Shown: positions 6,152-59,025 of the stretch, piece after piece | How positions within the stretch are numbered: position 1 is the stretch's first letter | Layout: each line of letters opens with the position of its first letter | Assembly: GCF_003386535.1 (NCBI RefSeq) | Contig: NZ_QTTN01000016.1 | Location: forward strand, 8,201-72,200 | Direction: 5' to 3' | DNA: 64,000 nt | Origin: Paenibacillus taihuensis | GTDB lineage: Bacteria > Bacillota > Bacilli > Paenibacillales > Paenibacillaceae | Made by a program: the position numbers and the translations under genes | The notes under the pieces: model-generated | What the model saw: only the letters and a program-made list of their open reading frames with translations | Databases searched by the model: none | Told to the model about the DNA's origin: nothing

Positions 6152-9100
6152 ATGTCAAGAAAAACGAGAAAAACTTCGCAAGTCATTTCTTCAATCGCTA
6201 TTGGCAGCATGTTATTCACAGGCACAGCAGCCTTTGCAAGTCCTTCTGTGGTAAATGAAAATGTTTCTACACACTGGGCAACGAAAGAATTGCAAAAATG
6301 GTTATCTATTGGACTATTGAAAGGTGATGCTAATGGTAACCTAAACCCTAACGATGCTATCACGCGCGCGGAATTTGTTACGATTCTGAATCGCGTTTTC
6401 AATCTTCAAAGCACAACTAACTCAAAAACTTTTGCTGACGCTAACCCTAGCGATTGGTATTTTGGAGAGCTTCAAAAGGCTTCTGCGGCCGGATTACTAA
6501 ACGGAGACTCCAAAAATAACGCGAATCCTAGAGCAGCTATTACTCGTCAAGAAGCCGCTGCTCTTATTTCAAGAGGATTCCAAGTTGTTTCTGGAACTAA
6601 TAACACTAATTTCAGTGATTCCTCACAGATTGCCAAGTGGGCTTCAGAAGCAGTTTCTACTCTTGCGTCAAAAGGATATCTAAATGGAAGAGGCAATGGT
6701 AATTTTAATCCTCTTGCTAAGATCACTCGCGCCGAATCTTTTGTTATGACAGATCGAGTAATGGGAACATTAGTTAGAACGCCTGAAGACCTTGCTAACC
6801 TTCCATCTACTATCACTGGAAATGTTACAATCGCTCTTCCTGGCGCTACGCTAAAAGGCCTTACTATCAACGGTGATGTTTATGTGACGGATGCGGCAGC
6901 AGCAGACCCAGTTGTTTTGGACCACACAACAGTAACGGGTGATCTAAGTATTGTAGTTGCACAAGGGGTAAACTTAATAGCTTCCTCTATTACGGGTACA
7001 ACAAATGTAGCGGATGCGCGACATACGATATCGTTAAACCTAGACTCTGATTCTTCTCTTAACACGCTAGTACTAAACGCTCCTGCTAATGTTACAGGTA
7101 CTGGTAGTATTCTAACAGCCAACATCAATTCAACCGGTGTTACAGTAGCCCAGCAACCGACTACTGTTAAGGTTGCAGCTGGTATTACTTCTACTGTTGC
7201 TGGTAAGTCTGTAGACAATACAACTTCTACCGGCACTGACACTGGTAACAACCATGGCAATGACACCGGGAACAACACTGGGGGTAACAACAGCGGCGAC
7301 ACTGGCAATATTAATCACAACACGCCGGTTGTTTCTGCAGTTTCAAATGGAAGCAAAGTCAACATGTACAGTACTCAAATCACTCGTTTGCAGCCTGAAG
7401 GATTGGATATAACGCAACCAATCAAATGGACAACTTCTGATCCTTATATTGCTTATGTGGATACCATCGGTAACAGCGCTGGCAACTTCGCAGGTAAAGT
7501 GCTTGGCGTTTCTGACGGGACAGCTACAATCACAGGTAAACAAGGCGAGACTACTGTTACTGTTTCTGTTACTGTTACAAATGATCCTAAAATAGCTACC
7601 AATTTAGAAAAAATCGTTTACTACTATAGCGCCGGCGATGATAAGATTCCTGATTCCTCTGATGCCCCTGCGCTAAATACGGATAATTTTACAGCTCTTG
7701 TTGGAAGAACTTGGCCTTCTGCAAGTTATGCTGGATATCTTAACGGTCCGAATGGTGTGAAGTGGATGCTCTCTTCCGACCACGCTTCGGTAACACTGTA
7801 TGATCCTAACAAGGCAAACCCAGCAGACCAAATCCAATACCTGCAAGGCGGAAGATATATCCCTCAAGATGCATCCGGTACAACTCAATCAATCGACATA
7901 ATGATGACCGATGCAGCCGGAGGACTTTGGATTATAGATGCAGCTGGAAACGCTACTCACATTGTGAGAAAACAAATATCCGTTATGGCATTGTCTTTGC
8001 AACAAGTTGAGTATTCAAGAAACTTCTTAGACCGTACCGGTTTCCAAGACGGCAAGAACAAATTCAGCTCTCAAGCGGATAAAATCGCTTCTTTGATGGG
8101 GACAAAAGATACAACAGATGTATCTGTAGCGAATCTGGAGAGCGATAACAGTGGCACGTGGACCTCGCTTTTCGGTATGGGTGAGCTAGGCCGATATAAC
8201 TATATGAAATCCGTATACGGTTCTAGCGACCAACGTACGATTGACGCTAAATCCTCTGCTATTCGCGCTACGGAAGCGGTTACTCTGCTAGCTTACATTT
8301 CGGGCACGCAATTAACTGTTCCTGCCAAAGACAATGTTAATGACTCTGATGTTCTAGCATTCCTTGGAGCTGATATTGACGGTAAGGATGAGGGCAAACC
8401 TGTATATATTGATTCTAACGGTCAATATACATTAAACCCAATCGGAACCACGCCGGCTCCCGGAGATGTGTTTGTTCGTGATTACCTTGTAAACCCTGCT
8501 AACCCAATGGCGATTGGAGATACAAACAGATGGGTTCATAAGAATGCTGGAACGACGACAGATATCAATGGTACAACCGTTAGCTACTCTAGCTTGATTA
8601 AAAACACAGGTGATTTAGCTAACCTCAAATCATATAACACGCTTCCCGTTCCTACTCGCTTAGCTAAGTTATATGACCCTAATGCGGGCACTGCCAACGC
8701 AATTCCTGATAACCAAATATACTACAAGCCAGACGCAAGCTCTGATGAATTTGTACAAGATTTCGCGTTCCTTAATATGGCTTATGACACCTTCAAAACA
8801 GATGATAAAGAGCTTGCATCTCTAATAAAGACGGCTATCATCTCGAGTGTCAACGCAACCATTATAAACAACTACTACCACATGGCTCTAAGCCCAAGAG
8901 TTGGCATCGATCCGGCATATAAACCAACTGGTCCTAAATACTCTGCCGGCTATGTAAACAGTGGTAATGGATTAAATGTTCCTACAACACCGACTAGATG
9001 GGGTAACTTTAATCCTGAATATCTGGATGGCGCAAACAACGTTTATAACAAATCCGATTATGAAGATGGACCCCTAAACGCAGGAATTGCTCTGCAGATG

Positions 9101-10573
9101 TTGCAATTAGGCATGAAAATCGCTTCCGACACATCCGTACCTGCTTATGCTGCAGAGGGCATTGTTTGTCCGCCGGCATTCGATTATGCACAGGAGTTCT
9201 CTGTAATGACAACTCCTAGCCTATACGAAGCAAGATATCCTAAAACATACAATTCAACTTCTTTGCTAGATATGATGGAGCAGTATCATTCAAGATACTT
9301 TGGTATCTCCGAGCATAATGGAAATGACATTGGAGCTGCTGGCTCAAGCTTTGAATCTTACCTAAACTACTCGGATGAAGAAGAAGTGGCAAGCTTATTC
9401 TTTGGTATTGCTACATCTCTACCTGCAAATGTTTCAAATGAAGTGTTAAACAGCTACCACAGAACTCTTAACCAATGGTGGTATAACGAAAAGAGAAGCA
9501 AGAACCCCTTCTTGTCATACTACTATGCTGTTGCATTGCAACAATTAGCTAACCGCGGAGTAGATATTACCAAAGACGCTGTCGATACAAACGCAGCTGC
9601 TTGGGCTTTGACTCGTATGCCAAGCAACCTGGGTGTGTGGGACGTTTCGAACAGCACAAGAAATGATGTAACAGATGTTCTAGACTATGGTCTTCTTCTA
9701 AAGAAGCCAATGCAAACAGATGATTTCCGTGTAGATCAACTGTTGCCAAGAGATGAATTTCCGACTTTCAAGTATAATGGAACTTGGTTTGAACCTGAAG
9801 GAGACAACGCTCTATCTGTCGAGGCATCTACGATCCTTTCAATGCCATACTGGTTTGCTTTAGACCCGAGTAATAATTCTTCTATTGCTCGACTCGGTTC
9901 AAAAGCAACACCTCCAAACCTGCCGGTTCCAAGTATAAGTGCAGTAGGAAGCACAGATGTAACTATTCATGTAGGCGAGACTGTTGACCTAGATGTTACA
10001 GGAAGCGAAAATTCCTATATTTCAAATATCTCTTGGGCAACTACTGCATGGGATAACCAAGACGATGACGGTTATGTAGCTAATCAAGTTGTCGATTTAA
10101 GAACACGATATAACCTTAGTACTAACGGTAGATATTACGGCTCTCAAGTTACTGGCTTAAATATCGGCACTACTACCGTTATCGCCATGACTACTGATGC
10201 TGGTTCTGATGCTCCTAGAACTGTTACATTTAACATAACAGTTGTAGACCCTAATACCAGCGCAACCCCAGTTCAAGACCTAGCACAAGTAACACCTGCA
10301 AACTTTGCGCTGCCGTCTTGGTTGACAAGCGTGCTTTCCAACGCTAACTTAGGCACAAACGGAAATGCTTATGCTTCAATTGAGTATTCTTCTAGCGATG
10401 AAACAAAAGGAACAGTAAACCCAGAAACAGGTATGATCGTTTATAATACTGAAGGTCAATTCAATGTAATTGCTACAGTTACTTACAGTGATATGACAGT
10501 GAACGGCAGCCCTATGTTCGAGAAAAGCCATGTAATGACGTTTGTTTGTCCTGTTGTCAAAGCAGCTAATTAA
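6152..10573 (+). CDS. S-layer homology domain surface protein, 1473 aa
   Basis: Secreted cell-wall protein. A signal peptide ends near AFA-S at residues 28-30. Three SLH domains follow, with motifs TRAE (71-74), TRQE (131-134) and TRAE (192-195); SLH domains bind pyruvylated secondary wall polymer. Residues about 215-345 are a beta-rich stretch, then a Gly/Asn/Thr linker (about 350-390) and a bacterial Ig-like (Big2-type) domain (about 390-480). Residues 480-1260 form a large domain that I cannot name; its mix of helices and aromatic residues would suit a carbohydrate-active enzyme. At least two Ig-like segments end the protein. AAAGGAG at 6137-6143 supports the ATG. It is the sole cargo of the tRNA-Arg island and lies behind a cre box. 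The AT-rich codon use differs from its neighbours. Confidence 0.9.
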   Translation: MSRKTRKTSQVISSIAIGSMLFTGTAAFASPSVVNENVSTHWATKELQKWLSIGLLKGDANGNLNPNDAITRAEFVTILNRVFNLQSTTNSKTFADANPSDWYFGELQKASAAGLLNGDSKNNANPRAAITRQEAAALISRGFQVVSGTNNTNFSDSSQIAKWASEAVSTLASKGYLNGRGNGNFNPLAKITRAESFVMTDRVMGTLVRTPEDLANLPSTITGNVTIALPGATLKGLTINGDVYVTDAAAADPVVLDHTTVTGDLSIVVAQGVNLIASSITGTTNVADARHTISLNLDSDSSLNTLVLNAPANVTGTGSILTANINSTGVTVAQQPTTVKVAAGITSTVAGKSVDNTTSTGTDTGNNHGNDTGNNTGGNNSGDTGNINHNTPVVSAVSNGSKVNMYSTQITRLQPEGLDITQPIKWTTSDPYIAYVDTIGNSAGNFAGKVLGVSDGTATITGKQGETTVTVSVTVTNDPKIATNLEKIVYYYSAGDDKIPDSSDAPALNTDNFTALVGRTWPSASYAGYLNGPNGVKWMLSSDHASVTLYDPNKANPADQIQYLQGGRYIPQDASGTTQSIDIMMTDAAGGLWIIDAAGNATHIVRKQISVMALSLQQVEYSRNFLDRTGFQDGKNKFSSQADKIASLMGTKDTTDVSVANLESDNSGTWTSLFGMGELGRYNYMKSVYGSSDQRTIDAKSSAIRATEAVTLLAYISGTQLTVPAKDNVNDSDVLAFLGADIDGKDEGKPVYIDSNGQYTLNPIGTTPAPGDVFVRDYLVNPANPMAIGDTNRWVHKNAGTTTDINGTTVSYSSLIKNTGDLANLKSYNTLPVPTRLAKLYDPNAGTANAIPDNQIYYKPDASSDEFVQDFAFLNMAYDTFKTDDKELASLIKTAIISSVNATIINNYYHMALSPRVGIDPAYKPTGPKYSAGYVNSGNGLNVPTTPTRWGNFNPEYLDGANNVYNKSDYEDGPLNAGIALQMLQLGMKIASDTSVPAYAAEGIVCPPAFDYAQEFSVMTTPSLYEARYPKTYNSTSLLDMMEQYHSRYFGISEHNGNDIGAAGSSFESYLNYSDEEEVASLFFGIATSLPANVSNEVLNSYHRTLNQWWYNEKRSKNPFLSYYYAVALQQLANRGVDITKDAVDTNAAAWALTRMPSNLGVWDVSNSTRNDVTDVLDYGLLLKKPMQTDDFRVDQLLPRDEFPTFKYNGTWFEPEGDNALSVEASTILSMPYWFALDPSNNSSIARLGSKATPPNLPVPSISAVGSTDVTIHVGETVDLDVTGSENSYISNISWATTAWDNQDDDGYVANQVVDLRTRYNLSTNGRYYGSQVTGLNIGTTTVIAMTTDAGSDAPRTVTFNITVVDPNTSATPVQDLAQVTPANFALPSWLTSVLSNANLGTNGNAYASIEYSSSDETKGTVNPETGMIVYNTEGQFNVIATVTYSDMTVNGSPMFEKSHVMTFVCPVVKAAN

Positions 10574-29854: not shown

Positions 29855-29896
29855 TCGAACTATTAATGTTAGTGAATCGCAGGAGGCGGAAGCTCT

Positions 29897-30751
29897 ATGA
29901 AAAATATCGTATCGTTAAAATGGTTGCTCGCACGCATGTATGAATCGGACATCGTCATCGTCGATTGCCGCTTCCAGCTTGGCAAGCCGGAGTCGGGGCG
30001 TGAGGCGTATACGGAATCGCATATTCCGGGCGCTGTTTATTTGGACTTGGAAAAGGACTTGTCCGCTCCTATTGAGGAGCACGGCGGACGCCACCCGCTG
30101 CCGGACATCGCGGATCTGACAGTCACGCTGAGCAAGGCGGGCATCGGCAATGCATCGCGCGTTGTAGCGTATGACGACCAAGGCGGGGCGATGGCTTCGC
30201 GGCTGTGGTGGTTGCTGAAGTATTTGGGGCACGAAGAGGTTTACGTGCTGGATGAAGGGTTTACGGCTTGGAAGAATGCGGGGTTCCCAGTGAACGCGGA
30301 GCAAAAGGTGCTTATTCCGGCGCAGTTTCTGGCGACTGTACAGCATAACTTGCTGGTAGAGGTCGACGAGGTGCGCGAGAAGCTGGGCAACGAGGCGGTG
30401 ACGATCATCGACTCGCGCGAGGGCGCACGCTACCGCGGCGAGGTCGAGCCGATTGACCGCGTAGCTGGTCATATCCCAGGCGCTGTGAACCGCTTCTGGG
30501 CGGAAGGTCGTGACGCGGACGGCAAGTACAAGAGCGGAGAAGCGCAAGCCGCGCGCTTCGAAGGGCTGCCGGTGGACGGCGAGACGATCGTCTACTGCGG
30601 TTCTGGCGTAACGGCGTGCCCGAACGTGCTGGCGCTGGATGAAGCGGGCTTCACGAATGTGAGGCTGTATGCGGGGAGCTGGAGTGATTGGATTACGTAT
30701 GAGGGGAATCCAATTGCGACTGGAGACGAGGAAGCGCAGAAAGGCGAATAG
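29897..30751 (+). CDS. two-domain rhodanese (sulfurtransferase), 284 aa
   Basis: Tandem rhodanese-fold enzyme of the SseA type (thiosulfate or 3-mercaptopyruvate sulfurtransferase). The N-terminal domain (VDCRFQLGKPESGREAY, HIPGAVYLDLE, WWLLKYLGHEEVYVLDEG) lacks the catalytic cysteine (AYDDQGG). The C-terminal domain carries the active loop CGSGVT after TIVYCGS. GGAGG precedes the ATG. It lies 42 bases after the membrane protein gene and ends at a strong terminator. Confidence 0.9.
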   Translation: MKNIVSLKWLLARMYESDIVIVDCRFQLGKPESGREAYTESHIPGAVYLDLEKDLSAPIEEHGGRHPLPDIADLTVTLSKAGIGNASRVVAYDDQGGAMASRLWWLLKYLGHEEVYVLDEGFTAWKNAGFPVNAEQKVLIPAQFLATVQHNLLVEVDEVREKLGNEAVTIIDSREGARYRGEVEPIDRVAGHIPGAVNRFWAEGRDADGKYKSGEAQAARFEGLPVDGETIVYCGSGVTACPNVLALDEAGFTNVRLYAGSWSDWITYEGNPIATGDEEAQKGE

Positions 30752-46582: not shown

Positions 46583-46630
46583 GAGCAAAAAAGCCGGGAG
46601 CCACCACTCTGGTGTGAACCCGGCCTTGAT
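46583..46630 (-). terminator. terminator of the Hcp-like gene
   Basis: AAAAAAGCCGGGAGCCACCA and TGGTGTGAACCCGGCTT form a hairpin; on the minus strand it is followed by TTTTTTGC. Confidence 0.75.
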
Positions 46631-46653
46631 TTTTCTTTTCAAACCGTTATCTA

Positions 46654-47259
46654 TTAAGGAATGACCGGTGTCGCCGTAGTTCCCTTGCTGACATCCCAAG
46701 CTGACTTGATCATGGCATTCAATGAGCCGTCTGGCTTCTGTGTAGAATAGCCGACGGAGATGACCTGATATTTAAGCGAGACGGATTCATCCGTATTGTT
46801 GAAGGAATAATTGGTGACGAATACATTGCTGAGGTTGATCGTCAGGACTTTGACAGGCTTCTCGATTCCGCCGCTTCCTCTAACAAAGACAAAGGTTGCG
46901 CTCTTAATGGCCTTTCCTTGCGCGTTTGCAAGGAAGATCGGCATGGATGCGGCATCGAATGACTTGGAGAAGGAGAGAGCGCTAAATGATGGCTTCCCGA
47001 CCGCCATACCCGTCCCTGCGAGGGTGGTGCCTTCGCTTTCAACACCGAACTGGACGCCAGTAACATTAATCCACTGTTCGTAACCTTGGGCAACCGATTC
47101 TCCCGGAATGCCGTCGAGCTTCAGATATACCTTGAAGTTGTCGTCCGATGAGATCGCCCCTGCTGTCGAGCCTCCAAACGATGCGGTAGCAAGCAGAATG
47201 GCGCAAGCAAGCAGAACGGTAAAAACCTTTTTCAACGAAACAGGCAATGAATGTGTCAT
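46654..47259 (-). CDS. secreted Hcp-fold (type VI tube-like) protein, 201 aa
   Basis: A Sec signal peptide (KKVFTVLLACAILLATASFG, cleavage near AGA) precedes a domain that matches the Hcp tube-protein family: FKVYLKLDGIPGES, WINVTGVQFGV, GKPSFSALSFSKSFDAAS, then KSATFVFVRGSGG, KVLTINLSNVFVTNYSF and VSLKYQVISVGY. In Gram-negative bacteria Hcp rings form the type VI tube. No other type VI gene is visible here and the organism is Gram-positive, so the role must differ. GGAGGG precedes the ATG. Monocistronic. Confidence 0.75.
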   Translation of the reverse strand: MTHSLPVSLKKVFTVLLACAILLATASFGGSTAGAISSDDNFKVYLKLDGIPGESVAQGYEQWINVTGVQFGVESEGTTLAGTGMAVGKPSFSALSFSKSFDAASMPIFLANAQGKAIKSATFVFVRGSGGIEKPVKVLTINLSNVFVTNYSFNNTDESVSLKYQVISVGYSTQKPDGSLNAMIKSAWDVSKGTTATPVIP

Positions 47260-47304
47260 AAAAATCCCTCCAATTGATTGGCTTTATGCATCTTGATCAA
47301 TACG

Positions 47305-47340
47305 AATTGTATCATAAACAACGCCATTTTAGATACAATT
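47305..47340. promoter_or_regulatory. inverted repeat upstream of the Hcp-like gene
   Basis: AATTGTATC (47305-47313) and GATACAATT (47332-47340) are complementary across 18 bases, in AT-rich DNA between the divergent Hcp-like and sigma factor genes. Candidate operator or overlapping promoters. Confidence 0.3.
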
Positions 47341-47442
47341 TGTAGTAATTTAAAATCTCCTTAATGAAGAGCTTGCAGCACGCACAGGCAAAAAGGGATG
47401 TTATTCCAATTTGGAGAATTATAGTACTTTGATGAGCATCAT

Positions 47443-48168
47443 GTGTTCGACATTTGGGGGGAGGGGAGGCAGTCGGAACTCCAGAAGAATTTGCTGCATA
47501 TGAAAGACCTGATGTACCGCTATAGCTTACGAATGACGCACGACCCTTGGGAAGCCGAGGATCTTACGCAGGACGCATTGCTAAAGCTTCATCTTGCGAT
47601 AGAAGCAGATCCAGAGCGACCCATCTCAAAAGCGTACCTATTCCGCATCGTAAGCAACGCCTCGAAGGATAAGCGGAAGCGTTCGAAGGGACAGGCCGCG
47701 AGATTGGACGTTGCAACTCCCGAAATAGCTGCACCAGATGAGGAGCTGGAGACGAGAGAGCTGCTGGAAGTGCTGGCGCACCGGCTGTCTCCTCGATCGA
47801 TGGTCATTTTGCTGCTGAGGGATGTGTTCGACTTCACGGCTAGAGAAACGGCTGCCTTCCTATCGTCCACTGAAGACGCTGTGCAGGTAGCGCTTAGCCG
47901 CGCTCGGCACAGGCTGCGCAAGCTTGCCAAGCAATCAAAGGCGGAAGAGACGCCGAAGGAAGCGCAGGGTCAGGCAGAGCGATGGGAACCGTACGATTTC
48001 GACAAGCTGGTAGACGCCTTTCGCAGGCGGGACCCGAAGTCCATCTGCCGGGCGTATGCGGGGCTTGCAAGGCAGCGCGTACGGTTAAGCAAGCTGTTCT
48101 GGGCGAACGGCAAACTGGCTTTTTATATAACGGACCCGGATGGAAACGGGTTTATGGTGACGGAATAA
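47443..48168 (+). CDS. ECF-like RNA polymerase sigma factor with C-terminal extension, 241 aa
   Basis: Sigma region 2 is seen in YRYSLRMTHDPWEAEDLTQDALLKL and region 4 in LSPRSMVILLLRDVFDFTARETAAFLSSTEDAVQVALSRAR. About 70 residues beyond region 4 (YDFDKLVDAFRRRDPKSICR to DPDGNGFMV) form an extension reminiscent of the C-terminal domains that replace an anti-sigma factor in some ECF groups. No anti-sigma gene is adjacent. GTG 47443 has no clear ribosome binding site; TTG near 47491 or ATG 47500 are alternatives. Target genes unknown. Confidence 0.8.
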   Translation: MFDIWGEGRQSELQKNLLHMKDLMYRYSLRMTHDPWEAEDLTQDALLKLHLAIEADPERPISKAYLFRIVSNASKDKRKRSKGQAARLDVATPEIAAPDEELETRELLEVLAHRLSPRSMVILLLRDVFDFTARETAAFLSSTEDAVQVALSRARHRLRKLAKQSKAEETPKEAQGQAERWEPYDFDKLVDAFRRRDPKSICRAYAGLARQRVRLSKLFWANGKLAFYITDPDGNGFMVTE

Positions 48169-56949: not shown

Positions 56950-59025
56950 GTGCGTTCAAAAATTATTAAACTATCCTATTGCTTCATGCTATTTAGTGCA
57001 CTACTTTGCGGTAATTCCTATGCTGCTGCCACTTCTGAGGGTAAAAGTAATGGGAATGTAACTTTTACAGATGTAGCCGGAGAGCACTATCACTTCCTTG
57101 CGCTAGACAGCACTGGGCATGTTTGGAGCTGGGGGAGTAACGTCGAGAATCAACTCGGGGAAATCCCTCAAAGCTACCGGGTGATTCCCGTACAGATTCA
57201 AGGAGTCGACGATGTAAAGCTAATCTCGGCGGGCTATGGTCATTCTACAGCCGTAAAATCAGACGGGACGGTCTGGAAATGGGGCTCGAATAGTTACGGT
57301 GTTCTGGGTAAAGATCCAAACACGGTTGACTATTCTATTAAGCCCATCCAAGTTGCGGGTATCGACCACGTCAAAGCAATTTCAGATAGCGCGTTCTTCA
57401 CGCTAGCCATTAAGGAAGATGGCACCGTCTGGAGTTGGGGGAGGAACGATGAGGGGCAGCTCGGTATTGGACGCACAAGCGACTACGAAGCAAAGCCCAT
57501 TCAAATTGCAGGCTTAAAGGATGTAGCAGCTATCTATGCTGATTTTTCCGAGGGCCTCGCTCTTACGTCAGATGGCAGGGTATGGACATGGGGGAACGTA
57601 ACGGTCTGCGGAACCGAGTATTGTGAACGAGAGGTGAGTTCTACGCCGACCTTGTTCGAAGGTTTGCAGAATGTAAAATCTATCTCTCAAGATATTGCGC
57701 TGCTGAAGGACGGGAGTGTTGTCAAATGGGGATTAAACTTCAGGGGAAGTATGGGGTTAGGTACCTTAAACGATTATTATTACGATCCAGCACCGATACC
57801 GTCTTTGAACAATATCACTGCGGTTTCTAAGACGCGTGCACTCACGGCGGATGGCCACATCTGGTCATGGGGCAGAAATGAGCGTGGGCAGGTAGGCGAC
57901 AATACACAGCAGAATCGGCCTACACCAGTGCTGCTTCCAAATATCGATCACATTAAAGATATGACGAGCGGTGAAGAAACGACGGTTGTGCTCACCGAAG
58001 ATGGCAAGCTGTTCGAGTGGGGTGACAATAGGAACGGAGAGATTTCCGGAGATGCAGTAGACATTATGCCGCCAACCGCAGTTCCCTTCACACTTCCACA
58101 GGTCAATTACACGTTGCCTATACCGCGAGATCCTTTCACGTGGACCTTCTTGGACGATAAGGATAAGCGAATAAAAGACCATCAGCTCTATCTTCGGGTG
58201 AAGCCTTATTCAGAAGGTTTGGCTGCCGTGCAGCGTGCTTCAAATCAGCTTTGGACTTTTATTAACGTTCATGGTCAGCCTGCTTTCTCCAACCAATTTA
58301 CCGTTGCGAAGGATTTCCACCAGGGAGTAGCGGCAGTCAAACTGCAGGACGGATGGCATTTTGTGAAGGCGAATGGCAAGTTCCTTAATCAAGTCAGCTA
58401 TCAAAACGCAGACTCTTTCTCGAACGGGTTAGCTCCAGTAATGCTCAAAGGCAAGTGGGGCTATATCGGGCTGGATGGAGAAATGAAAATCACTCCTCAG
58501 TTCGCAAGTGGCGCGCCGTTCGAGAATGGTATGGCAGCTGTGCAGATGAACGGGAAGTGGGGATTCATTAATTTGACGGGGAAGCTTGTTATTAAGTCGT
58601 CCTATTCAGCAGCAGGTTCATTCTCAAGTCAGTTGGCTGCCGTTAAGCAGAACGACCTATGGGGATATATGAACAAAGCAGGTGTTTGGGTTATTAAGCC
58701 TCGTTTCCAGGATGCGAAGGGGTTTACTGATTCTAAGCTGGCGCCGGTGAAGATCAATGGAAAATGGGGCTATATTAACGCAACTGGAAAGCTAGAAGTT
58801 CCAGCACAATATGAAGATGCAAGCACATTCCAAGAAGGGTGCGCGAGTATAAAGAAGAATGGACTATGGGCTATCATTCAGAATAACGGCAAGCTGCTGA
58901 CGCCTTTTCAATTCGTGTCCATTCAACCTTTTAAGAACAATAAAGCTTGGGCGGTTACCAAAGCCGACAATGGATACATCAGCATTAATGGCAGTTGGTC
59001 CTATAAAGCAGCCATTTATCACTAA
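56950..59025 (+). CDS. secreted RCC1-repeat and WG-repeat protein, 691 aa
   Basis: A signal peptide (IIKLSYCFMLFSALLCG, cleavage near AYAAA) leads into an RCC1-type propeller of about six or seven repeats (residues about 45-385; recurring GHVWSWGSN, GTVWKWGSN, GTVWSWGRN, GHIWSWGRN). The C-terminal half (about 395-690) consists of WG repeats such as GKWGYIGLDGEMKITPQF and GKWGFINLTGKLVIKSSY. Both repeat types bind partners rather than catalyse; the ligand is unknown. AAGGAG precedes GTG 56950. Seventeen bases separate its stop from a small peptide gene coupled to a diguanylate cyclase. Confidence 0.88.
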   Translation: MRSKIIKLSYCFMLFSALLCGNSYAAATSEGKSNGNVTFTDVAGEHYHFLALDSTGHVWSWGSNVENQLGEIPQSYRVIPVQIQGVDDVKLISAGYGHSTAVKSDGTVWKWGSNSYGVLGKDPNTVDYSIKPIQVAGIDHVKAISDSAFFTLAIKEDGTVWSWGRNDEGQLGIGRTSDYEAKPIQIAGLKDVAAIYADFSEGLALTSDGRVWTWGNVTVCGTEYCEREVSSTPTLFEGLQNVKSISQDIALLKDGSVVKWGLNFRGSMGLGTLNDYYYDPAPIPSLNNITAVSKTRALTADGHIWSWGRNERGQVGDNTQQNRPTPVLLPNIDHIKDMTSGEETTVVLTEDGKLFEWGDNRNGEISGDAVDIMPPTAVPFTLPQVNYTLPIPRDPFTWTFLDDKDKRIKDHQLYLRVKPYSEGLAAVQRASNQLWTFINVHGQPAFSNQFTVAKDFHQGVAAVKLQDGWHFVKANGKFLNQVSYQNADSFSNGLAPVMLKGKWGYIGLDGEMKITPQFASGAPFENGMAAVQMNGKWGFINLTGKLVIKSSYSAAGSFSSQLAAVKQNDLWGYMNKAGVWVIKPRFQDAKGFTDSKLAPVKINGKWGYINATGKLEVPAQYEDASTFQEGCASIKKNGLWAIIQNNGKLLTPFQFVSIQPFKNNKAWAVTKADNGYISINGSWSYKAAIYH

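What the first reader, a model, noticed from the sequence alone, without database searches (positions are those of the whole stretch)
46654..47259. Hcp-fold protein with Sec signal peptide in a Gram-positive host
The mature protein follows the full Hcp pattern, but no sheath, baseplate, ClpV or VgrG gene is present and the protein is exported by Sec. Hcp ring or tube assembly outside the cell would be a new use of the fold, such as a surface tube, spore structure or binding protein.
Basis: partly seen in the sequence, partly recalled or inferred. Interest (0 to 1): 0.65.

Follow-up and report, generated by a model that had tools for sequence, protein, structure and literature searches.

The report
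Secreted Hcp protein without injection machine
Some soil Paenibacillus-type bacteria export a protein with the fold of the tube subunit of the type VI injection machine, although no such machine was found in the genome, and its gene carries the same DNA switch sites as exopolysaccharide genes, which suggests that it is a building block or binder in the slime or surface layer around the cell.

Summary
Window 46654-47259 (-) encodes a 201-aa protein with a signal-peptide-like start and a complete Hcp domain (PF05638, 3.8e-28; AlphaFold pLDDT 90.6; solved T6SS Hcps align at Z up to 21.5). It is the genome's only Hcp. TssC, phage-type sheath and VgrG/gpD were not found in the genome, and TssC in none of 295 genomes of the family. 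Of those, 33 carry Hcps, and all 47 Hcp ORFs examined begin with a signal-peptide-like segment. Thirteen of 35 loci pair a short Hcp with a longer one that ends in an OmpL47-type domain (4 scanned).
The new finding is regulatory. A palindromic operator (TGATACRNNNYGTATCA, PBSX-Xre type) precedes hcp at 26 of 35 loci, against 0 of 361 other genes of these loci. The two best sites of the window lie just upstream of hcp. In congeners 38 of 79 sites adjoin XRE or core exopolysaccharide genes.
Best reading: a T6SS-derived, Sec-exported Hcp, repressed by an XRE protein together with exopolysaccharide genes, acting outside the cell as a ring- or fibre-forming matrix or surface protein (TasA-like in logic, unrelated in fold). 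Export, T6SS independence and operator are well supported computationally; repression, assembly and matrix role are inferred.

The parts
46654..47259 (-). hcp gene: 201-aa Hcp-family protein with signal-peptide-like start
   Evidence: ORF; PF05638 3.8e-28; dN/dS 0.155 against the G001 orthologue
47155..47259 (-). predicted Sec signal peptide, residues 1-35, cleavage after AGA (by eye)
   Evidence: hydropathy 3.02 over 12 residues; no signal-peptide program available; no Cys at the cleavage site
46654..47154 (-). mature protein (166 aa, no Cys) used for the structure model
   Evidence: AlphaFold2 pLDDT 90.6, pTM 0.85; solved T6SS Hcps at Z up to 21.5, rmsd 1.1 A
46747..47127 (-). Hcp domain (residues 45-171)
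   Evidence: PF05638 positions 1-129 of 129
47296..47316 (.). proximal XRE-type operator, TATGATACAATTCGTATTGAT on the hcp strand
   Evidence: highest-scoring site of the 64-kb window, 18.9 bits; highest in 30 simulated windows 14.75; related site before three orthologues at 14.7, 14.7 and 18.3 bits
47329..47349 (.). distal, weaker operator copy 33 bp further upstream, ATTACTACAAATTGTATCTAA on the hcp strand
   Evidence: second-highest site of the window, 13.0 bits (alone within the range of the simulations, whose highest was 14.75); a similar second site by eye in G001 and G020
47266..47271 (-). ribosome-binding site GGAGGG
   Evidence: sequence; GGAGGGATT shared by the four orthologues aligned
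46590..46627 (-). terminator-like hairpin running into six U just after hcp, suggesting a monocistronic unit
   Evidence: fold of 46586-46645 -24.8 kcal/mol, z -3.9; the simple terminator scan found none

Best explanation
The gene descends from T6SS tube-protein (Hcp) genes, gained a signal peptide, and was kept by some Paenibacillaceae without the injection machine. The protein is exported by Sec and acts outside the membrane. Its transcription is held down by an XRE-family repressor at one or two palindromic operators; the same operator type sits before the repressors' own genes and before exopolysaccharide (EPS) genes, so Hcp would be made when EPS is made. Outside the cell I infer that it assembles (hexameric rings are what this fold forms in T6SS) as a protein component of the EPS or surface layer, a counterpart in logic of TasA, which the repressor SinR controls together with the eps operon in B. 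subtilis. Where a second Hcp with a C-terminal OmpL47-type domain exists, it may be the anchor or cap. Supported by computation: fold, exported-type N-terminus, absence of the core T6SS/CIS families tested, operator. Inferred: that the XRE proteins bind these operators and repress, ring or fibre assembly, matrix role, anchor role.
For: Complete Hcp domain and fold. Signal-peptide-like segment in 47 of 47 Paenibacillaceae Hcp ORFs (two of them identical copies), against 2 of 40 non-Paenibacillaceae loci by eye (L089, L106). No TssC, VgrG/gpD or phage-type sheath match in the own genome; TssC in 0 of 295 genomes of the family. Operator: a matrix trained on 76 non-hcp sites of congeners ranks the two sites just upstream of hcp first and second in the window. 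A site of at least 13 bits lies within 320 nt upstream of hcp at 25 of 35 loci (22 at 15 bits or more), and at 26 counting L070, whose short hcp had dropped from the ORF set (exact site), against 0 of 361 other genes of the same loci (highest 3.2 bits). Genus-wide the pattern gives 198 strand matches in 22 genomes (many sites count on both strands) and the reversed pattern 0. Of 79 sites examined, 23 adjoin XRE genes and 21 core EPS genes (6 both), 38 in all (domains of representatives, tally). In the own genome, sites precede an EPS operon and three of the four XRE genes found. SinR/TasA precedent: PMC6334530 and PMC7911366, passages. dN/dS 0.14-0.31 in 7 chosen pairs.
Against: Nothing here shows export, assembly or DNA binding by experiment. 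41 of 79 operator sites adjoin neither a gene of the main XRE cluster nor a listed EPS gene; among them are 6 PilZ genes, other polysaccharide enzymes, an SLH protein, large proteins with glycoside-hydrolase, lyase or carbohydrate-binding domains, an SpvB/TcdB-type gene, and sites inside or beside genes with no such link. The regulon is therefore broader than EPS, and co-regulation does not prove a matrix role. 9 of 35 hcp loci have no operator. The window's sites (18.9 and 13.0 bits) are weaker than the training mean of 27.1, and the second alone is within the simulated range. In the own genome the one-mismatch pattern gives 12 sites against 5 for the reversed control, so only the best few are convincing. 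No neighbour of hcp is conserved across the loci. Residues 41-50 of the model, where the inter-ring loop of Hcp lies (recalled), have a mean pLDDT of only 68.
Confidence: 0.5

Rival explanations
1. A secreted or wall-associated binding protein that uses the Hcp beta-barrel as a monomer or single ring to bind EPS, wall polymer or plant glycans, without tubes or fibres.
For: Operator sites also precede EPS genes and polysaccharide-active proteins; paralogues fuse Hcp to OmpL47-type domains; needs no stacking.
Against: No known Hcp binds glycan as its main role (recalled); the glycine-rich loop is kept, e.g. GTGMAVGK in the window and GTGLSAGK in an Acidobacteriota Hcp.
Confidence: 0.25
2. A secreted antagonistic or host-directed effector or toxin carrier: Hcp released by Sec instead of T6SS, acting on other cells.
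For: Pfam titles the family 'Type VI secretion system effector, Hcp'; one operator in a congener precedes an SpvB/TcdB-type gene.
Against: Pfam sees no domain other than Hcp in the window protein; no neighbour conserved at the 35 loci that could be an immunity partner; the only fused domain identified is OmpL47-type (4 long forms scanned).
Confidence: 0.1
3. Part of a still unrecognised extracellular contractile or tube device encoded elsewhere in the genome.
For: The fold also resembles CIS and phage tail tubes (Z 8.5-10.4).
Against: No TssC, phage-type sheath or gpD/VgrG match in the genome; a Sec-exported tube subunit could not assemble inside a cytoplasmic sheath (inference).
Confidence: 0.04
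4. Decaying relic of a horizontally acquired T6SS gene that happens to carry an N-terminal hydrophobic segment.
For: Patchy distribution, 33 of 295 genomes; no conserved neighbours.
Against: dN/dS 0.14-0.31 in 7 of 7 chosen pairs, signal-peptide-like segment in 47 of 47, conserved operator, terminator-like hairpin.
Confidence: 0.02

Closest known systems
Hcp / TssD, the type VI secretion tube protein (Pfam PF05638; PDB 1Y12, 4TV4, 3EAA)
   Same: Complete domain and fold: the four best rows have Z 21.1-21.5 at 1.1-1.5 A rmsd over 138-153 residues; glycine-rich loop kept.
   Different: Signal-peptide-like start; no sheath or VgrG match in the genome; NCBIfam TIGR03344 score 29.1 below its cut-off of 58.9; a loop before the conserved ESVSL strand is about 4-8 residues shorter than in most of the non-Paenibacillaceae Hcps aligned; operator shared with EPS genes.
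TasA matrix fibres under SinR in Bacillus subtilis
   Same: Logic: an exported small protein and EPS genes under one repressor; TasA fibres are helical repeats of globular units (PMC6334530 passages).
   Different: Unrelated domain (Pfam gives only T6SS_HCP); operator differs (SinR's site recalled, not searched); hcp is alone, beside an ECF sigma gene and a hexapeptide-repeat protein; assembly here unproven.
Xre repressor of prophage PBSX and its operator
   Same: Published consensus GATACATTTTGTATC (PMC4243335 passages) fits the palindrome found here; two candidate repressors scanned are HTH_3 proteins of 110 and 122 aa.
   Different: Here the sites lie before chromosomal EPS, surface and hcp genes; best NCBIfam model for the regulators is RstR family, below its cut-off.
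Phage and CIS tail-tube proteins (pyocin, AFP, PVC, monocin)
   Same: Same barrel arrangement at lower similarity (Z 8.5-10.4).
   Different: Far below the best Hcp matches, though two listed Hcp entries also score only 10.4-10.5; no phage-type sheath in the genome.

Membership tests
Hcp superfamily (PF05638) | Match to the whole Hcp domain over the curated cut-off | tested here: met
   98.8 bits against 23.5, positions 1-129 of 129
Hcp superfamily (PF05638) | Hcp fold | tested here: met
   pLDDT 90.6; for example TM 0.85/0.88 to 1Y12 chain C and 0.86/0.88 to 3EAA; Z up to 21.5
Hcp superfamily (PF05638) | Hexameric ring and head-to-tail stacking | not testable with these tools
   Only monomer prediction was offered
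T6SS tube protein TssD (working part of a type VI machine) | Sheath protein TssC in the same genome | tested here: not met
   0 of 1 own genome; 0 of 295 genomes of the family; control rang in E. coli
T6SS tube protein TssD (working part of a type VI machine) | VgrG/gpD spike in the same genome | tested here: not met
   0 of 1 own genome; control rang in E. coli and Synechococcus
T6SS tube protein TssD (working part of a type VI machine) | TIGR03344 score over its curated cut-off | tested here: not met
   29.1 bits against 58.9
T6SS tube protein TssD (working part of a type VI machine) | No N-terminal signal peptide (cytoplasmic assembly) | tested here: not met
   Hydrophobic signal-like N-terminus; by eye and hydropathy, no dedicated program
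T6SS tube protein TssD (working part of a type VI machine) | ClpV and membrane/baseplate Tss proteins | not tested
Phage-tail or extracellular contractile injection system tube | Phage_sheath_1-type sheath in the genome | tested here: not met
   0 of 1 own genome; control rang in B. subtilis, E. coli, Synechococcus
SinR-type matrix regulon (works like) | Same repressor-type site before EPS genes, before an XRE gene and before an exported protein | tested here: met
   Own genome EPS operon and XRE sites, hcp sites, genus-wide
SinR-type matrix regulon (works like) | The XRE protein binds these sites and represses | not testable with these tools
   Needs a binding assay or deletions
TasA family (member of) | TasA/CalY-type sequence domain | tested here: not met
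   Pfam scan at E 0.001 gives only T6SS_HCP

The most novel reading that the evidence does not exclude
Paenibacillaceae turned the tube subunit of the type VI injection machine into an extracellular biofilm-matrix polymer: Sec-exported Hcp rings stack into tubes or fibres in the EPS, capped or anchored by Hcp-OmpL47 partners, under an XRE repressor that co-represses EPS genes. Hcp-OmpL47 fusions occur in two well-supported clades, so this use may have arisen twice.
Probability: 0.33. Interest if true: 0.82.

Novelty: new variant of a known kind. Interest (0 to 1): 0.64.

Why it matters
Such genes are easily labelled 'type VI secretion system tube protein' by annotation, although the sheath and spike families were not found in this genome. 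If the reading is right, a nanomachine part has been re-used as an extracellular material in Gram-positive bacteria, and the XRE operator set gives these Paenibacillus a SinR-like matrix regulon that can be tested at once by binding assays, deletions and microscopy. The operator also supplies a list of other likely matrix and surface genes.

Tried and rejected
Single-protein scan of genome contigs found nothing and a 21-member alignment was too divergent for the scan; a closer six-member alignment found 53 loci. Viral contigs: no relative. Plasmid and phage collections: 81 and 5 records, the rows shown 25-35% identical, most of the plasmid rows labelled T6SS tube protein. PADLOC: nothing. PHROGs: one family of unknown function.

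A conserved operon partner was looked for at 35 loci by clustering ORFs; beyond groups of close relatives none was found (12 of the 35 neighbourhoods read). The divergent ECF sigma gene (47443-48168) was considered as dedicated regulator and rejected: it is not next to hcp in the orthologues G001 and G020, while the operator stays with hcp.

One single origin of the exported Hcps: the tree of 94 rows splits them into two supported clades of 28 and 23 rows, but holding them together is not rejected (p-AU 0.30, after dropping three long rows). So one or two origins.

The promoter scan of the hcp region gave 2 hits against 1.2 in shuffles, the terminator scan none; the hairpin was found by folding. 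The second model (Hcp-OmpL47 form of L082, pLDDT 75.9) has a low-confidence linker and C-terminal part; its fold was not searched.

Papers: ten searches. In the listings I saw no title on an exported Hcp in Gram-positives, and in those none on this operator in Paenibacillus; several listings were cut, and the library lacks most subscription journals.

Left out of counts: in the Hcp ORF set the short Hcp of L070 was lost by the overlap filter (48 places, 47 ORFs analysed). The operator listing was cut within G017; I fetched the listed non-hcp sites of G001-G009 and G014-G016 and three of seven of G010 (60 stretches), plus two stretches of the own genome. G011-G013, the rest of G010 and G017-G021 were not examined.

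Full report
WHAT IS THERE. The ORF at 46654-47259 (-) is real: 201 aa, ATG start, GGAGGG ribosome site. Pfam finds one family, T6SS_HCP, over the full profile at 3.8e-28. NCBIfam's T6SS tube model matches but stays below its cut-off (29.1 of 58.9 bits). phmmer finds solved T6SS Hcps (best 3.5e-12). The mature part was modelled with AlphaFold2 from 34 sequences: pLDDT 90.6, pTM 0.85. The 50 Foldseek matches shown are Hcps, or chains that contain Hcp. The second aligner puts solved Hcps first, at Z up to 21.5 and down to 10.4, and phage and CIS tubes at 8.5-10.4.

EXPORT. The first 35 residues have a basic start, a hydrophobic core and AGA before the mature part. Among 47 Hcp ORFs from 35 Paenibacillaceae loci every one has such a segment (best 12-residue hydropathy 2.27 or more). 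Of 53 loci found by alignment search in named genomes, 13 are Paenibacillus or Cohnella, all with the segment (weakest L080, 2.05). Of the other 40, only two, an Akkermansia MAG (whose matched frame is short and broken) and a Burkholderiaceae MAG, show one before the domain, judged by eye. No signal-peptide program was available.

NO MACHINE. The own genome (6.79 Mb, completeness 99.99) has one Hcp and no match to TssC/VipB, VgrG/gpD or phage-type sheath; control genomes rang each time. TssC is absent from all 295 genomes of the family searched. ClpV and other baseplate genes were not searched.

DISTRIBUTION. Hcp occurs in 13 of 22 genomes of the genus, 33 of 295 of the family in 4 of 19 genera, 1 of 398 of the class, which is the window's own, and 2 of 398 of the phylum, own plus one partial match in a 161-aa frame. 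Thirteen of 35 loci carry a pair: a short Hcp and a 278-307-aa Hcp. In four of four long ones scanned, NCBIfam sees an OmpL47-type domain after the Hcp domain, three over the cut-off and one below. The window's genome has the short form only. The tree gives two supported clades (28 rows with the window, 100/98; 23 rows, 100/98), the second beside the signal-bearing Burkholderiaceae protein (100/86); long forms occur in both clades. One origin is not rejected (p-AU 0.30). Codon comparison gives dN/dS 0.14-0.31 in 7 of 7 chosen pairs. In short, the family is kept by selection.

THE OPERATOR. No gene next to hcp is conserved across the loci, but upstream DNA is: a palindrome GATACRNNNYGTATC. In the own genome, the pattern with at most one mismatch gives 12 sites against 5 for the reversed control. 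Four are convincing: two before an EPS operon (epimerase, UDP-glucose dehydrogenase, GalU, epimerase, acyltransferase, Wzz, tyrosine kinase), one before galU inside it, and one before an XRE gene. Of four XRE genes found with that protein as query, three have sites before them: the one on C8, one on C3, and one divergent from the EPS operon; the fourth has none. In the 22 genomes of the genus the 16-base pattern matches 198 times (both strands counted), and the reversed pattern never. In 62 stretches I examined 79 sites: 23 adjoin a gene of the main XRE cluster, 21 a core EPS gene (Wzz, GalU, CpsD, CpsB, LytR-CpsA-Psr, UDP-glucose dehydrogenase, epimerase), 6 both, 41 neither (domains of representatives). 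A Pfam tally of 99 genes beside the sites shows 25 HTH_3, 7 Wzz, 6 AraA, 6 PilZ and 4 LytR-CpsA-Psr members. The 41 include six PilZ genes, a glycosyltransferase, polysaccharide epimerases, an acyltransferase, an SLH protein and large proteins with glycoside-hydrolase, lyase or carbohydrate-binding domains, and also sites inside or beside genes with no such link.

DOES HCP BELONG TO IT? A weight matrix from 76 sites, none of them at hcp, was run over the window. Its two best sites out of 64,000 positions are 47296-47316 (18.9 bits) and 47329-47349 (13.0 bits), both between hcp and the divergent ECF gene; the next is 10.4 bits. The highest score in 30 simulated windows was 14.75 (mean of highest 6.7), so the second site alone is not beyond chance, but its place is telling. 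Across 35 hcp loci, 25 have a site of at least 13 bits within 320 nt upstream of hcp (26 with L070; 22 at 15 bits or more), against 0 of 361 other genes in the same loci. Nine loci have none. The palindrome fits the published consensus of the PBSX repressor Xre, GATACATTTTGTATC, as quoted in PMC4243335 (passages).

HOW IT PROBABLY WORKS. An XRE-family repressor holds hcp and EPS genes off; when it is relieved, the cell exports polysaccharide and Hcp together. In B. subtilis SinR directly inhibits the operons for EPS and for TasA fibres, and recombinant TasA fibres are helical repeats of globular units (PMC6334530 passages; the regulation also in PMC7911366 passages). Hcp in T6SS forms hexameric rings that stack (established knowledge), and the glycine-rich loop is kept in the exported family, so an extracellular ring stack is plausible. 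Steps supported here by computation: fold, signal-peptide-like start, absence of the core T6SS/CIS families tested, operator. Steps inferred: repression, assembly, matrix role, and the anchor role of the OmpL47 partner. A monomeric binder in the same layer is the main rival.

KNOWN OR NEW. The domain is known; similar genes on plasmids of Proteobacteria are labelled T6SS tube protein. In the listings of six searches I saw no paper on an exported Hcp in Gram-positives, and in two more none on this operator in Paenibacillus. I therefore rate it a new variant of a known kind: an Hcp by fold and likely descent, not a T6SS component, in a SinR-like regulon.

Noticed in passing
L136:5074-5406, L137:5492-5749, L230 (own genome contigs C8, C53, C3): Three XRE-family regulator genes with operator-type sites before them: a probable auto-regulated repressor set for EPS and surface genes.
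   Followed up: partly
L137:2570-13171: EPS operon with three operator-type sites before it (5820, 5849, 5969), one before galU (8532) and one after the kinase gene (13151), beside an 874-aa right-handed beta-helix protein.
   Followed up: partly
L089:6456-7277 (Akkermansia MAG), L106:1933-2493 (Burkholderiaceae MAG): Hcp proteins with signal-like N-termini in Gram-negative genomes; the second groups with one Paenibacillaceae clade.
   Followed up: partly
L022 and L023 (P. lignilyticus contigs): Two hcp loci in one genome encode identical proteins with the same upstream DNA in the 170 bases printed: a recent duplication or an assembly repeat.
   Followed up: no
L174, L177, L180, L191, L195, L224: PilZ-domain genes carry the same operator, which hints at a link between the XRE regulon and cyclic-di-GMP signalling.
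   Followed up: no
L192:2646-5099: One operator in a congener precedes an SpvB/TcdB-type gene; described only.
   Followed up: no
window 29896-29916: Third-best operator-like site of the window (10.4 bits), at the start codon of a rhodanese gene; probably chance.
   Followed up: no
window 56950-59025: 691-aa protein with RCC1-type and WG repeats.
   Followed up: no
window 6152-10573: 1473-aa S-layer-homology protein in a stretch of lower G+C (4-12 kb).
   Followed up: no
L173, L176, L183, L189, L204, L222: XRE gene of the MTMGDRL type lies divergent from L-arabinose isomerase with the operator between them.
   Followed up: no
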